A DNA stretch of 64,000 bases from a virus. The DNA lies in the IMG/VR virus record IMGVR_UViG_3300035670_000018, positions 62,001 to 126,000 of that record, one strand, 5' to 3'. Positions 7,055 to 58,860 of this stretch are shown here, piece after piece. Every line of letters starts with the position of its first letter. Within the stretch, counting starts at the first letter, position 1. A program made the translations under genes and the position numbers. The notes below the pieces were generated by a model. The model ran no database searches. It was given only the letters and a program-made list of their open reading frames with translations, and was not told the DNA's origin.

Positions 7055-7642
7055 ATGACCAAACAAAATAATAAAGTACACTACGTAGATAATCAAAAGT
7101 TCTATCAGGAAATCTTAGAACACAAGAGAAAGCTAAAAGAAGCGAGAGAACAAGGTAAAGAAGATCCTAGATTGTCCAACTACATAGGTGAATGTATATG
7201 GAAGATAGCAAACAAGCTGTCATGTAAGCCTTGCTTTATCAACTATTCCTACAGAGATGAGATGATTTCAGATGCCATAGAAAACTGTATACTATATTTC
7301 AATGACTATGATCCAAATAGAGGTTCCAATCCATTTGCATACTTTACTCAGGTCATATACTTTGCTTTCCTGAGACGCATCAATAAGGAAGAAAAGAACA
7401 GATACATCATCTATAAGAATTTCCAAGAGACTGTTATAAACAATGGACATGCAGGATTCCTCGTAGATGGAGATGACAATCACTTGCTTTCCGTAAATCT
7501 TTATGATAACATAAATGAGTTTATGGAAAAGTATGAGAAGAAAGAAGCTATCAAAAAGCAAAAGCGAAAAGAACAAAAGTTAGGTCTAACAAAGTTTTAT
7601 GAGGAAGAAAAAGATGAACAGCGAAGTACCGTTTCAAGTTGA
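7055..7642 (+). CDS. 55: Late sigma factor, T4 gp55-like
   Basis: 195 residues from ATG 7055, chosen over the TTG at 7037 because GAGGAAAG precedes it. The core SYRDEMISDAIENCILYFNDYDP...NPFAYFTQVIYFAFLRRI is the conserved region-2-like part of gp55. Known: gp55 binds host RNA polymerase and recognises TATAAATA late promoters, using the gp45 clamp as activator; gp45 is also in this window. The C-terminus is very basic and acidic-patchy, as in T4. Confidence 0.93.
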   Translation: MTKQNNKVHYVDNQKFYQEILEHKRKLKEAREQGKEDPRLSNYIGECIWKIANKLSCKPCFINYSYRDEMISDAIENCILYFNDYDPNRGSNPFAYFTQVIYFAFLRRINKEEKNRYIIYKNFQETVINNGHAGFLVDGDDNHLLSVNLYDNINEFMEKYEKKEAIKKQKRKEQKLGLTKFYEEEKDEQRSTVSS

Positions 7643-13954: not shown

Positions 13955-16186
13955 ATGGAAGTAGTACACAATCACAATGCTAAGTCCCAGCTAGCCAAGT
14001 TGCTGGCTACGGAAAACATTACGGTACAGCACTCGGCCGCCGCACAAACTGCTATGTTTGATGTGGTTAAGCGTGTTCTGATTCTCCCTGTCTGGCGCGA
14101 AATGTCCAATGACCTGTATGACATGCTGGTTGTTCACGAGGTTGGTCATGCTCTTGACACACCCTCTGACGGCTGGCTTGACGCATTGTCTGACATTGCA
14201 AAGCGAGTCACTGGTGCGGCTTCCAATCGTGCTATGGGTGCAGTCAAGGGCTTTCTAAACGTCATTGAAGACGCCCGCATTGACAAGCGCCAGAAGCGCC
14301 GTTTCCCTGGCTCTCGCCGCAACTATGTCAAGGGCTATGCTGAACTCATTGAACGTGACTTCTTTGGCACCAAGTCCAAGGACGTTAACTCTATGGCTTT
14401 CATTGACCGCTTGAATATCTACTTCAAGGGCGGTGCAATGTCTGGTATCAAGTTCTCGGCCGAAGAAAAGGCTATGGTTGCTAAGGTTGAAGCGGCTGAG
14501 ACTTTTGATGAGGTGCTTGCACTCACCGAGGAAATCTTCGGTTGGTCTAAGTCTAAGCAGGAACAGGACGAGCCTGAAACTGACTCGGACGATATTAGTG
14601 CTAAGGGTGGAATGTCCGACGAGGACGACTATGACTTTTCCGACGAGTCTGATGAGGAAGATTTCGGCGATGATGATGAGGAAGAAAACTATACCTCTGG
14701 TCGCGGCGATGACGACTCTGATGATGAGGACGAGGATGAAGACGGTGAGTCTGACTCGGACTATGATGCCGAAGCTAATGACGGCGTTCTCAAGCGCGAC
14801 TCTGATGATCCGATAAACGTCGGTGCAAAGTCTGATGATGACATTCCCGAGTCTGAAACTGAAAAGGCTTGGCAAAAGAATCAGGAAGACTTGGTAATCA
14901 AGTCGGACGAGGAATATGTCTATGTGAAGATCCCTCGCCCTGTCAAGTATGAACAGGTTGTAAATGATTACAAGATTGTTCTGGCGGATCAGCGCAAGTG
15001 TATTGCTGGCTTCTGGAACCAGGATTGGCTCAAGGCTGTTCGGACTGAACTCCAGAAGTTCAAGGCTGATGAAAACGCATCAATCTCTTTCATGGTTAAG
15101 GAGTTTGAAATGCGGAAGTCGGCTGATGAATACAGCCGTACCAGCATCTCTAAGACTGGCGTGATTGACACAAACAAGCTTCATTCATACAAGTATAATG
15201 ATGACCTGTTCCGTCGGATCACCACTGTTGCTTCTGGCAAGAACCACGGCTTTGTCATGTTTGTTGACTGGTCTGGCTCTATGGACATTCATCTTAAGAA
15301 GACTGTAAAGCAGCTTCTTTCGCTGACCATGTTCTGTAAGCGGGTTCAGATTCCGTTTGAGGTCTACTCGTTCCGTAGTGTCACTGGCTTTGATGTTGAT
15401 TCTGGTCGTATTAGTGGCAATCTTTTCACTACCAACCAGAATGAACTGTTCTTTGACAACTTCGTGGCCCGTAATCTGCTTTCATCGCGGATGAATGTTG
15501 CTGAATTCAATGATGCAATGTTCCATCTTTATGTGATGGCTTGCGGCGGTCATATTCGGAGCGATAGTCTCCAGTCCACTCCTCTTAACGAGTGTATTGG
15601 TGTGGCTGACATGATTGTCAATCGGTTCAAGGCTAAGTCTCAGGTTCAGATTGTTAACACAATCTTCCTGACTGACGGCGACTCTGATCCGATCCATGCT
15701 GTTAACGGTCTTATGTCTTCCTGGAAGTCCCGCAAGTATATTCTGCAGGATGAGATTACCAAGAAGACCTACGATATCCGTGCTAACAAGGACTCTTATC
15801 GGTATCGTGATCCTTACTCTGATAAGGAGATGACCAATCTCCTGCTCCGTGTTCTCAAGGATCGGACTGGCTGCAATCTGATCGGCTTCTATATCACCTC
15901 TTATGGCTTTAATTCAGCATATGACCGTGTGAACGGTCAGTCTGGCGAAGCGCAAAAGAAGGCTTCGGCCGATTGGCGTGATAATGGCTTCTTCGGTGTG
16001 TCAACTGCTGGTTATGATGAATACTATATTATCAACCAGAAGACGTTTGATGTATCGTCTGGAAATCTTAAGATTGATTCCAAAATGACCAAGAACAAGA
16101 TGGCCAAGGAATTCATCAAGTTTTCGGAAAAGAAAGCTGTGTCCCGCGTCTTACTCTCTCGGTTTGTCAAGCGAATTGCCGCTTGA
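13955..16186 (+). CDS. Metallopeptidase-like VWA protein (CobT-like)
   Basis: 743 residues. The N-terminus carries a zinc-peptidase motif, VVHEVGHALDT (about residue 60), followed by NVIEDARIDK. Residues about 205-295 are a nearly continuous Asp/Glu/Ser linker, as in CobT. The C-terminal VWA domain has the MIDAS motif FVDWSGSMD near residue 438 and TIFLTDGDSDP near 570. Next gene is a CobS/MoxR AAA+ ATPase, the usual partner. In CobNST these drive metal insertion; in the phage they more likely act as a MoxR-VWA chaperone pair (inference). GC looks higher than in neighbours. Confidence 0.8.
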   Translation: MEVVHNHNAKSQLAKLLATENITVQHSAAAQTAMFDVVKRVLILPVWREMSNDLYDMLVVHEVGHALDTPSDGWLDALSDIAKRVTGAASNRAMGAVKGFLNVIEDARIDKRQKRRFPGSRRNYVKGYAELIERDFFGTKSKDVNSMAFIDRLNIYFKGGAMSGIKFSAEEKAMVAKVEAAETFDEVLALTEEIFGWSKSKQEQDEPETDSDDISAKGGMSDEDDYDFSDESDEEDFGDDDEEENYTSGRGDDDSDDEDEDEDGESDSDYDAEANDGVLKRDSDDPINVGAKSDDDIPESETEKAWQKNQEDLVIKSDEEYVYVKIPRPVKYEQVVNDYKIVLADQRKCIAGFWNQDWLKAVRTELQKFKADENASISFMVKEFEMRKSADEYSRTSISKTGVIDTNKLHSYKYNDDLFRRITTVASGKNHGFVMFVDWSGSMDIHLKKTVKQLLSLTMFCKRVQIPFEVYSFRSVTGFDVDSGRISGNLFTTNQNELFFDNFVARNLLSSRMNVAEFNDAMFHLYVMACGGHIRSDSLQSTPLNECIGVADMIVNRFKAKSQVQIVNTIFLTDGDSDPIHAVNGLMSSWKSRKYILQDEITKKTYDIRANKDSYRYRDPYSDKEMTNLLLRVLKDRTGCNLIGFYITSYGFNSAYDRVNGQSGEAQKKASADWRDNGFFGVSTAGYDEYYIINQKTFDVSSGNLKIDSKMTKNKMAKEFIKFSEKKAVSRVLLSRFVKRIAA

Positions 16187-50557: not shown

Positions 50558-50680
50558 AATAAAATCAATGACTTAGCCACCATATAAATCAATGACTTAG
50601 CCTATGCGTCTGGTGCATATCTGCTATGCGGAGATAACCCTTGAAAATCGGGGTTGCCGACCCCATATCTAGTATGTAAC
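50558..50680 (+). promoter_or_regulatory. Iteron/palindrome promoter cassette, copy B
   Basis: Two copies of ATCAATGACTTAGCC (50564-50578 and 50588-50602), then TATGCGTCTGGTGCATATC (50603-50621) containing the hairpin GCATA-tctgc-TATGC, then TTGAAA (50641-50646), a GGGGT/ACCCC hairpin, and CCCATATCTAGTATGTAAC (50662-50680). Same order and spacing as copy A; a 22-base stretch around the first repeat is identical in both (13524-13545, 50558-50579). Confidence 0.65.
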
Positions 50681-50697
50681 AAGAGAAGAGGTATTCC

Positions 50698-53533: not shown

Positions 53534-53623
53534 CGGAGTGAGACTAAGAGTCAGAGAGGACTTATAAACCTTTTGCAGCCGATTACTGCCTTTGAGGTGG
53601 AGCGTTACCACCCACTCCGACCA
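53534..53623 (+). tRNA. Degenerate class II tRNA-like gene (loop reads TAT, Ile)
   Basis: Acceptor CGGAGTG/CACTCCG plus ACCA; D-like hairpin GACT-AAG-AGTC without GG; anticodon-like AGAGG/CCTTT with CTTATAA inside; variable arm GCAG/CTGC; T-like stem GGTGG/CCACC with loop AGCGTTA instead of TTCRANY. tRNA-Thr(GGT) at 59589 has a related loop, ATCGTTA, so it may still work. Confidence 0.4.
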
Positions 53624-53779: not shown

Positions 53780-53866
53780 ATGAAACCCATTCTACCTCCA
53801 TTTACAATTAATCAAGAAACATGCCAGCCATCATGGGCAGGTGTGATGAGGGGTTCTATGTATTAA
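53780..53866 (+). CDS. Leader peptide of a putative attenuator
   Basis: 28 codons (MKPILPPFTINQETCQPSWAG...). ACGGAA precedes the ATG. The frame covers GGGGTTCT (53850-53857), which can pair with the 5' arm of the downstream terminator. The short length, placement between promoter and terminator and overlap with a competing stem fit a regulatory leader. Contains Trp19, Cys15 and three Pro. Confidence 0.5.
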   Translation: MKPILPPFTINQETCQPSWAGVMRGSMY

Positions 53867-53891
53867 GTCTTAGTACAGACTTAGTTTCTTA

Positions 53892-53929
53892 GAACCCCGA
53901 AGCCAAAAGTTTCGGGGTTCTTCGTTTTT
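53892..53929 (+). terminator. Terminator/attenuator after the leader peptide
   Basis: GAACCCCGAA (53892-53901) and TTCGGGGTTC (53911-53920) form a perfect 10-bp stem, followed by TTCGTTTTT. AGAACCCC (53891-53898) can instead pair with GGGGTTCT at 53850-53857 inside the leader frame. Confidence 0.8.
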
Positions 53930-53932
53930 ATA

Positions 53933-54018
53933 GTTGCGTCCAGTGCATAGCAGATATGCGAAAAAAGAATAAGAAAAGACTTGAAATTGGCTGCGACAAG
54001 CACTATATTAGATATGTA
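53933..54018 (+). promoter_or_regulatory. Palindrome promoter cassette, copy C
   Basis: TTGCGTCCAGTGCATAGC...TATGCG (53934-53960) contains GCATA-gcaga-TATGC, the exact reverse complement of the 15-mer in copy B. Then TTGAAA (53981-53986), 17 bases, TATATT (54004-54009) and the shared AGATATGTAA block. The direct repeats of copies A and B are missing. Confidence 0.6.
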
Positions 54019-54288
54019 AGAGAGAAAAGAGTTTCCCAGCCGCGCGGGACAAGATGCGGTCGCTGTTTAACATTGTTAAGTTCCTATGAGTTACCCTTGC
54101 TCACTCAAGGGCGCACTGAGTAGCGAAATATCCAGTGAGGGACTGTGACTCAGCACAGCCTCACATTCTATCTCTTCAGATATGCACCGGGCATTGTAGC
54201 TACTGCCTAGTGTGGCACAGTCGCGCTGCTTCGGTGGCGTTCAAGATGAACTGTTCGATTCAGTTGGTGCATATCTGAAGTGATAGAA
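54019..54288 (+). ncRNA. Large structured RNA candidate downstream of promoter C
   Basis: No protein frame is supported between 53930 and the tRNA at 54294. Hairpins: CCTTG/CAAGG, and GTGAGG-CTGTG/CACAG-CCTCAC (54135-54164). Then a 22-bp near-perfect stem, 54166-54188 with 54266-54288 (one T-T mismatch), encloses a UUCG hairpin CGCTGC/GTGGCG and a T-arm-like hairpin AACTG-TTCGATT-CAGTT next to the stem. The last part resembles a tRNA with a very long acceptor stem and no CCA. Confidence 0.55.
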
Positions 54289-54293
54289 TACAT

Positions 54294-54370
54294 TCCTCTC
54301 AAGCCAACTAGGTGGAGGCAACTGACTGTTAATCAGTGTACGACAGGTTCGAATCCTGTGGGGGGAGCCA
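54294..54370 (+). tRNA. tRNA-Asn (GTT)
   Basis: Acceptor TCCTCTC/GGGGGGA with G-T pairs, anticodon stem ACTGA/TCAGT with loop CTGTTAA, T-arm ACAGG-TTCGAAT-CCTGT, CCA encoded. Starts 6 bases after the large structured RNA. Confidence 0.88.
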
Positions 54371-55322: not shown

Positions 55323-55437
55323 AGCGTTGTAGGAGCAGAAGTGACCTTGTTGGGATGGTCTGCTGTATGCGGCTCACAGGCGAGTTGAGGGGTTTGATCA
55401 CCCCAAGTCTGGCGAGGGTTCAATTCCCTCCAACGCT
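55323..55437 (+). ncRNA. 115-nt tRNA-like RNA without CCA
   Basis: Acceptor-like AGCGTTG/CAACGCT (7 bp, perfect) and a true T-arm GAGGG-TTCAATT-CCCTC. Between them are 84 bases with AGCAGA/TCTGCT and GGGGT-ttgatc-ACCCC hairpins and no standard anticodon arm. CTGTATG could present GTA, but with a weak stem. No CCA follows. It may be an aberrant tRNA or a tRNA-mimic. Confidence 0.55.
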
Positions 55438-58649: not shown

Positions 58650-58860
58650 GAATGCTAACTCCGACGGGAGTTGGCCGAGTGCAAGGAAATGACTGCTCAC
58701 CAGGAGCGGTTAACTTGGCTAGATGGTGTGGTGCCCGTGCGCGACTGACGAGAGTCAGAGGCGTATCGTCTCCGACCAAGAGAATCTAGGCTGACACGTG
58801 GCAGATACAAGGTATCTTGGTCGTGTCTTGTGGGTGTACCCCAGTCCCACCTCACCTTAT
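58650..58860 (+). ncRNA. About 200-base structured region between tRNAs
   Basis: No supported frame. Hairpins: AACTCC-gacg-GGAGTT, CTGCT/AGCGG, CTGAC-gaga-GTCAG, GACACG/CGTGTC enclosing AGATAC-aag-GTATCT, and GTGGG/CCCAC. TTGGCCGAGTGCAAGG resembles a Ser-type D-arm and CTCCGACCA resembles a tRNA end, so part may be a decayed tRNA-Ser. A late-type AATAAATA (58643-58650) precedes it. Confidence 0.45.

What the first reader, a model, noticed from the sequence alone, without database searches (positions are those of the whole stretch)
54019..54288. Long structured RNA with a 22-bp stem and an embedded T-arm
Behind promoter copy C, 270 bases carry no gene but strong stems, ending in a 22-bp near-perfect stem that encloses AACTG-TTCGATT-CAGTT in tRNA geometry. 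It suggests a tRNA-derived regulatory RNA with an extended acceptor stem. The stem also contains the GGTGCATATCTG word of the promoter cassettes.
Basis: seen in the sequence. Interest (0 to 1): 0.7.

Follow-up and report, generated by a model that had tools for sequence, protein, structure and literature searches.

The report
Phage tRNA-like RNA in long hairpin
Between the tRNA genes of an uncultured phage lies a conserved, uncatalogued structured RNA that looks like a non-decoding tRNA sealed inside a 23-base-pair hairpin, with a self-complementary loop that could let two copies stick together; sister phages keep the shape while the letters change, so it is real, but what it does is not yet known.

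Summary
Window 54165-54289 holds a 23-bp Watson-Crick stem (one T.T mismatch) whose 3' arm directly follows a perfect T-arm. 100 simulated 64-kb sequences reached at most 17 bp. Nine further viral contigs carry the same RNA ("family A"). On ten sequences 97% of pair cells are kept and 19 pairs change on both sides; 0 of 500 shuffles reach this. G-U outnumbers A-C nine columns to one: a + strand RNA. Sister phages carry other long-stem RNAs at the same place, and the Rfam tRNA model scores above its cut-off inside "family B" (38.1, 33.3 bits). No Rfam family matches the window RNA. "tRNA-derived with an extended acceptor stem" is thus largely right; the promoter-word link and the tRNA-Asn-leader alternative are not supported. 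New here: a hairpin after the 5' arm has a palindromic tetranucleotide that differs between variants (AGCU/GAUC/GGCC), the covariation reported for the symmetric kissing loop of OLE RNA (PMC12286853). Best guess: a non-decoding tRNA-derived ncRNA at the head of the second tRNA operon, released by RNase P and perhaps RNase III, that may homodimerise. Transcription, ends, dimerisation and function are untested.

The parts
53981..54009 (+). sigma-70-type promoter TTGAAA-N17-TATATT; predicted start about 54016
   Evidence: the same spacing is found before the element in L019 and L025 and, driving a small ORF first, in L013 and L020
54019..54164 (+). 5' part of the transcript (leader)
   Evidence: z = -3.45 for the whole; 3' two-thirds shared with L013, L019, L020, L025, partly L005, L011, L132
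54063..54084 (+). conserved box CTGNTTNACATTGTTAAGTTCC, kept in front of families A to D
   Evidence: 24 viral stretches hold the exact CTGATTKACATTGTTAAGTTCC
54165..54188 (+). 5' arm of the long stem (P1)
   Evidence: 10 of its 22 aligned pairs change on both sides in relatives
54189..54208 (+). inserted hairpin P2, stem GGGCA/TGCCT
   Evidence: 3 of 5 pairs change on both sides
54196..54203 (+). palindromic loop GUAGCUAC of P2; candidate symmetric kissing loop
   Evidence: invariant in 10 family-A sequences; GGGAUCCC in L010 copy 1 and GGUGGCCACC in family B
54210..54220 (+). D-arm-like hairpin P3 (GUG/CAC)
   Evidence: paired in all 10 sequences, never varies, so no covariation support
54221..54245 (+). 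hairpin P4 in the place of the anticodon arm; loop UUCG here, no anticodon
   Evidence: both-side changes in 4 of 9 pairs; loop length and sequence differ between relatives
54249..54265 (+). T-arm AACUG-UUCGAUU-CAGUU
   Evidence: 2 of 5 pairs change on both sides, UUCGA invariant
54266..54289 (+). 3' arm of the long stem (P1)
54294..54370 (+). tRNA-Asn(GUU), whose 5' maturation by RNase P would create the 3' end of the RNA
   Evidence: the cleavage itself is inferred

Best explanation
It is a phage-encoded noncoding RNA of a new structural family: a tRNA-derived cloverleaf that can no longer decode (the anticodon arm is a short-loop hairpin), with its acceptor stem extended to 22-25 bp and an extra hairpin (P2) with a self-complementary loop inserted between the 5' acceptor strand and the D-arm. 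It is made from its own sigma-70-type promoter at the head of the second tRNA operon. RNase P cutting at the 5' end of the following tRNA would leave it with a 3' end 4 nt beyond the long stem; RNase III could trim the stem. The long stem prevents RNase P from treating it as a pre-tRNA. Two copies would pair through the palindromic P2 loops, and the stable dimer would act in trans as a tRNA mimic or scaffold during infection. Shown by sequence: structure, covariation, strand, locus, tRNA kinship of the sister elements. Inferred: transcription, processing, dimerisation, action in trans.
For: Covariation on 10 sequences: 97.0% of 440 cells paired against 88.4% shuffled, 19 pairs with both-side changes against 7.6, 0/500; slid controls 2-6. 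L128 keeps the interior but has a different inner stem (AAGAAACACACC/GGTGTGTTTCTT in place of CAGATATGCACC/GGTGCATATCTG), all pairs kept. GU against AC columns 9:1 in A and 4:0 in B: RNA, this strand. Family B at the same locus behind the same leader: RF00005 38.1 bits (L129) and 33.3 bits (L020), gathering 29. With P2 removed and the acceptor cut to 7 bp plus ACCA, ARAGORN calls the window, L013 and L004 elements as tRNAs with three different 'anticodons'; 4-8% of shuffled middles are called. P2 tetranucleotide AGCU, GAUC (L010 copy 1) or GGCC (B), the same palindrome switch that supports the symmetric kissing loop L9.3 of OLE RNA (PMC12286853). Terminator at 53891-53921 and promoter at 53981 make the RNA the start of a unit. 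Extended acceptor pairing inhibits RNase P (PMC9433436). The RNA persists before tRNA-Lys and tRNA-Pro, and L010 has two copies.
Against: No expression data. The palindrome switch rests on three states, the window-type loop itself never varies, and a hairpin with a 4-nt loop explains the outer letters of the palindrome. P3 never varies. Family A is too far from tRNA to be found by the tRNA model directly, so its tRNA descent is inferred from architecture and from family B. Families C and D at the same locus have other interiors, which suits a role of the stem alone. The ARAGORN test used an edited sequence with ACCA added and failed on L008 and L128. No partner protein is known.
Confidence: 0.45

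Rival explanations
1. Cis-acting processing and insulation leader of the tRNA operon: the roughly 22-bp stem is an RNase III site (or a roadblock to exonucleases) that separates the leader from the tRNA precursors; the interior matters little and the RNA has no role in trans.
For: A long stem is kept in every relative that covers the tRNA-Leu(CAA)-tRNA-Asn interval, including contigs fetched by a protein and not by the stem (L015, L019, L020-L023, L025, L026); the stem usually ends 1-14 nt before the next tRNA; stem letters change freely and interiors differ between families A, B, C and D. RNase III cuts long dsRNA (PMC8708148).
Against: Within family A the interior (GUAGCUAC, GUGU..CACAG, UUCGA) is as conserved as the stem or more so, and P2, P4 and the T-arm covary; a cleavage site would not need a cloverleaf. 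Short gaps are the rule throughout these arrays.
Confidence: 0.3
2. RNase P or tRNA-enzyme decoy: the T-arm stacked on a long acceptor binds RNase P, tRNA-modifying enzymes or tRNA-targeting host nucleases without being consumed.
For: T-arm and acceptor geometry is kept; pairing that extends the acceptor stem slows RNase P by blocking the step after binding (PMC9433436); phage tRNAs are known to take part in defence against tRNA-targeting nucleases (PMC10264068, abstract seen).
Against: The anticodon-arm loop is not conserved, so an anticodon-nuclease decoy is unlikely; no binding data; the P2 palindrome is unexplained.
Confidence: 0.12
3. A decaying tRNA pseudogene caught in a DNA element with inverted repeats; structure is only a by-product of the palindrome.
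For: Tandem copies (L010) and exchange of stem families between nearly identical leaders.
Against: Compensatory changes in P1, P2, P4 and the T-arm, the G-U excess on one strand, constant orientation with the tRNAs, no second copy in the window's own genome.
Confidence: 0.08
4. A phage Y RNA (YrlA type): a tRNA-like module on a Ro60-binding stem.
For: Y RNAs of bacteria also combine a tRNA-like module with a long stem (own knowledge).
Against: No Rfam YrlA match in the region even at E up to 10; no TROVE/Ro60 gene in the 167-kb record, which may however be incomplete.
Confidence: 0.03

Closest known systems
ROOL and GOLLD RNAs (phage RNAs near tRNA islands) and OLE RNA
   Same: Structured phage or bacterial ncRNA; ROOL and GOLLD are often encoded near tRNAs; symmetric kissing loops with palindromes that switch GGCC/GAUC/AGCU (OLE L9.3) (PMC12286853).
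   Different: 125 nt instead of 600-800; tRNA-like core; long closing stem; no Rfam match to any of them; dimerisation here is only predicted.
Canonical tRNA (RF00005)
   Same: T-arm next to the acceptor stem, D-arm-like hairpin; family-B relatives pass the Rfam cut-off.
   Different: 22-25-bp acceptor stem, inserted hairpin P2, no anticodon, no 3' CCA; the window RNA itself does not match the model.
tmRNA and YrlA Y RNAs
   Same: Non-decoding tRNA-like domain in a longer RNA (own knowledge).
   Different: No reading frame or tag, no match to either model in the region, no Ro60 gene found.
manA RNA (RF01745)
   Same: Structured RNA inside phage tRNA arrays; one lies in this same array at 58657-58858, 8 nt before tRNA-Gly.
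   Different: Unrelated sequence and structure.
Stable RNAs C and D (species 1 and 2) of phage T4
   Same: Non-tRNA stable RNAs made from a phage tRNA operon (own knowledge; no open paper found).
   Different: Not compared by sequence; no T4-like record matched the element.

Membership tests
tRNA (RF00005) | match to the Rfam model at or above 29 bits | tested here: not met
   no match in 54019-54288 up to E = 10; met only by the family-B relatives L129 and L020
tRNA (RF00005) | 7-nt anticodon loop with U33 and a conserved anticodon | tested here: not met
   loops of 4-6 nt that differ between relatives; family B equally variable
tRNA (RF00005) | T-arm adjoining the acceptor stem | tested here: met
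   54249-54265 followed directly by 54266; covarying; one extra base between them in L128
tRNA (RF00005) | aminoacylated CCA 3' end | not testable with these tools
   no CCA is encoded at the 7-bp position; needs biochemistry
ROOL / GOLLD / OLE | match to the Rfam model | tested here: not met
ROOL / GOLLD / OLE | symmetric intermolecular kissing loop | tested here: inconclusive
   palindrome switch AGCU/GAUC/GGCC; no experiment
YrlA Y RNA (RF02553) | match to the Rfam model | tested here: not met
YrlA Y RNA (RF02553) | Ro60 partner | tested here: not met
   no TROVE domain in the record; host unknown
tmRNA | model match and tag-peptide frame | tested here: not met
RNase III processing site | about 20 bp or more of dsRNA kept in evolution | tested here: met
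   cleavage not testable here

The most novel reading that the evidence does not exclude
A tRNA gene in a phage tRNA array has been turned into a non-decoding, homodimerising RNA (kissing through a palindromic loop) that works as a small RNA-only complex during infection, a much smaller relative in kind of the ROOL and GOLLD cages found near phage tRNA islands.
Probability: 0.28. Interest if true: 0.82.

Novelty: new variant of a known kind. Interest (0 to 1): 0.62.

Why it matters
Phage tRNA arrays are usually read as lists of tRNAs. Here the same slot in related phages is always filled by a long-stem RNA with changing interiors, two of them tRNA-like but unable to decode. If it dimerises, it would be a minimal, tractable model for the question raised by ROOL, GOLLD and OLE: what do RNA-only multimers near phage tRNAs do? 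It also gives annotators a warning, since tRNA finders report the family-B version as an odd tRNA of undetermined identity.

Tried and rejected
Rfam at gathering and at E up to 10 over the region: nothing but tRNA-Asn and chance. Y RNA: no Ro60. RNA repair: no RtcB or RNA_ligase-family gene found; no phage RNase III. INPHARED phages by blastn with the window, L008, L020 and L128 elements: only tRNAs or chance pieces. 84,980 bacterial and archaeal genomes with the P2-P3 pattern: seven matches, none confirmed by the covariance model. Viral contigs with the P2 tetranucleotide left open: only the known members are real, so the search for more loop variants of family A led nowhere. DnaB-anchored relatives L040-L119: no match. 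First stem statistic counting G-U was too permissive and was replaced by a Watson-Crick count. Functional link of stem and promoter word: rejected. The L021 match at 23 bits (14145-14272) overlaps tRNA genes and was dropped as false.

Full report
1. Observation. The region lies in a tRNA array of 27 tRNAs on a 167,363-base viral record. No ORF of 60 aa or more covers 54019-54288. The stem 54165-54188 / 54266-54289 has 23 Watson-Crick pairs and one T.T mismatch. Simulated sequences of the same length and dinucleotide composition reached 11 to 17 pairs in 100 trials. The piece folds 7 standard deviations below its shuffles. A first scan that counted G-U pairs did not separate the stem from chance, so I rely on the Watson-Crick count and, above all, on comparison. 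Upstream there is a terminator-like hairpin at 53891-53921 and a promoter-like TTGAAA-17-TATATT at 53981-54009, which would make the RNA the 5' end of a transcription unit that continues into tRNA-Asn.

2. Relatives. The pattern GATATGCACC-N60-90-GGTGCATATC gave 11 viral stretches; L007 is chance, L006 and L014 repeat L004 and L013, and 8 are distinct. The conserved leader box gave a ninth, L128, found without using the stem. All lie in tRNA arrays, on the tRNA strand, directly before tRNA-Asn, except tRNA-Pro in L004 and tRNA-Lys in L010. L010 has two copies; the first, at 7245-7419, scores 85 bits with the model.

3. Structure. RNAalifold gives one long stem P1 closing P2, P3, P4 and the T-arm. 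For this structure on ten sequences 97.0% of cells are paired (88.4% shuffled), 19 pairs have both-side changes (7.6), covariation score 0.290 (0.126), none of 500 shuffles as high; sliding the partners gives 2 to 6 such pairs. P1 has 10 such pairs, P2 three, the two parts of P4 four, the T-arm two; P3 never varies. The ten sequences are related, so shuffles overstate significance; the slid control does not share that fault. Nine of the stem-pattern sequences were chosen for ten exact bases in each arm, so only L128, found independently, is fair evidence for changes in the inner stem; it changes four inner pairs on both sides (columns 21, 25, 27 and 28). Columns with G-U number 9 and with A-C 1 in family A, 4 and 0 in family B, as expected if the + strand RNA is what is selected.

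4. Other elements at the same locus. Contigs L019, L020-L023 and L025 were fetched through an 88-aa protein encoded upstream, not by the stem. They have almost the same leader as the window but another stem, ATTCTACTTTCGTCAGTAGTCAC/GTGACTACTGACGAAAGTAGAAT. This family B (with L129) also covaries, and its interior is a cloverleaf that Rfam's tRNA model accepts: 38.1 bits in L129, 33.3 in L020. ARAGORN reports L129 as a tRNA of undetermined type. The arm in the anticodon position differs in length and sequence between the four members. Family C (L026, L120 and others) and L132 have further interiors in long stems. Upstream of the family-A copy, L005, L010, L011 and L012 have yet another long-stem element of about 170 nt. 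All protein-fetched relatives that cover the tRNA-Leu(CAA) to tRNA-Asn interval have a long stem there.

5. tRNA kinship of the window RNA. Order of parts in A and B is the same: 5' long strand, hairpin with palindromic loop, D-arm-like GUGU-GG-CAC, arm without anticodon, T-arm UUCGA, 3' long strand. With P2 deleted, the acceptor cut to 7 bp and ACCA added, ARAGORN calls three of five family-A members, with three different anticodons, against 4 to 8% of versions with shuffled middles. This is suggestive, not proof.

6. The palindromic loop. P2 carries GUAGCUAC in all ten family-A sequences, GGGAUCCC in L010 copy 1 and GGUGGCCACC in family B. The outer letters can pair within the hairpin; the inner AGCU, GAUC and GGCC cannot, because adjacent bases in one loop cannot pair. 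Kretsch and colleagues used this argument, with the same three tetranucleotides, for the symmetric kissing loop of OLE RNA (PMC12286853). Energy calculation allows strong dimers, but that calculation models extended duplexes, not kissing loops. The sample of states is small (three), and I noticed the pattern after the fact.

7. Processing. RNase P must cut at the 5' end of the next tRNA, 4 nt past the stem in the window (general knowledge). Pairing that extends an acceptor stem inhibits RNase P at the step after first binding (PMC9433436), so the cloverleaf would not be cut out by RNase P. A stem of this length is a typical RNase III substrate (general knowledge; PMC8708148). None of this was tested. 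The phage record shows no RNase III.

8. Promoter word. GGTGCATATCTG is exact in the stem and at 50612. Of family-A relatives, L008, L009, L010, L012 and L013 have no promoter word within 900 nt (up to 3 mismatches) although the stem holds the 12-mer; L019 and L025 have the word with an unrelated stem. The link is accidental as far as I can tell.

9. Verdict. A real, conserved, uncatalogued structured RNA, most likely tRNA-derived and non-decoding. Function remains open: action in trans as a dimer (0.45), cis processing element (0.3), decoy (0.12).

Noticed in passing
53780-53866: Micro-ORF MKPILPPFTINQETCQPSWAGVMRGSMY between tRNA-Leu(CAA) and the terminator, behind its own promoter-like site; conserved as 26-28-aa versions (MKxxYCPFTINQETRQPSWAGV...) in L015, L020-L023, L025, L026, L120, L125, L126, L129, L136.
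   Followed up: partly
58657-58858: manA RNA (RF01745, 61.6 bits) inside the tRNA array, 8 nt before tRNA-Gly.
   Followed up: no
53534-53623: A tRNA-Ile(UAU)-like gene with an unusual T-loop (AGCGTTA), not called by ARAGORN in the window; called as Ile(tat) at the same place in L005, L011, L019 and others.
   Followed up: no
55324-55437: tRNA-like element: 7-bp acceptor AGCGTTG/CAACGCT and T-arm GAGGG-TTCAATT-CCCTC around about 80 nt that is no normal tRNA body.
   Followed up: partly
L039 9984-10080: In the cultured Rhizobium phage RHph_I1_18 the tRNA-Asn itself, with anticodon, sits in a 16-bp extended acceptor stem (CTAGTGCTTAGCTCCGG/CCGGAGCTAAACACTAG) and has no encoded CCA; a possible intermediate.
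   Followed up: partly
L004 5698-5813: A further 21-bp perfect stem, 8 nt before tRNA-Glu, with an unrelated interior.
   Followed up: no
L017 5431-5827, L024 3686-4067: Permuted tmRNA genes (tag ANDNFAPRMALAA) upstream of the arrays of relatives; none found in the window.
   Followed up: no
50605-50690 and 53940-54015: Repeated promoter cassette with an imperfect palindrome GCATAGCAGATATGC before the -35 box, in opposite orientation in the two copies; possible operator.
   Followed up: partly
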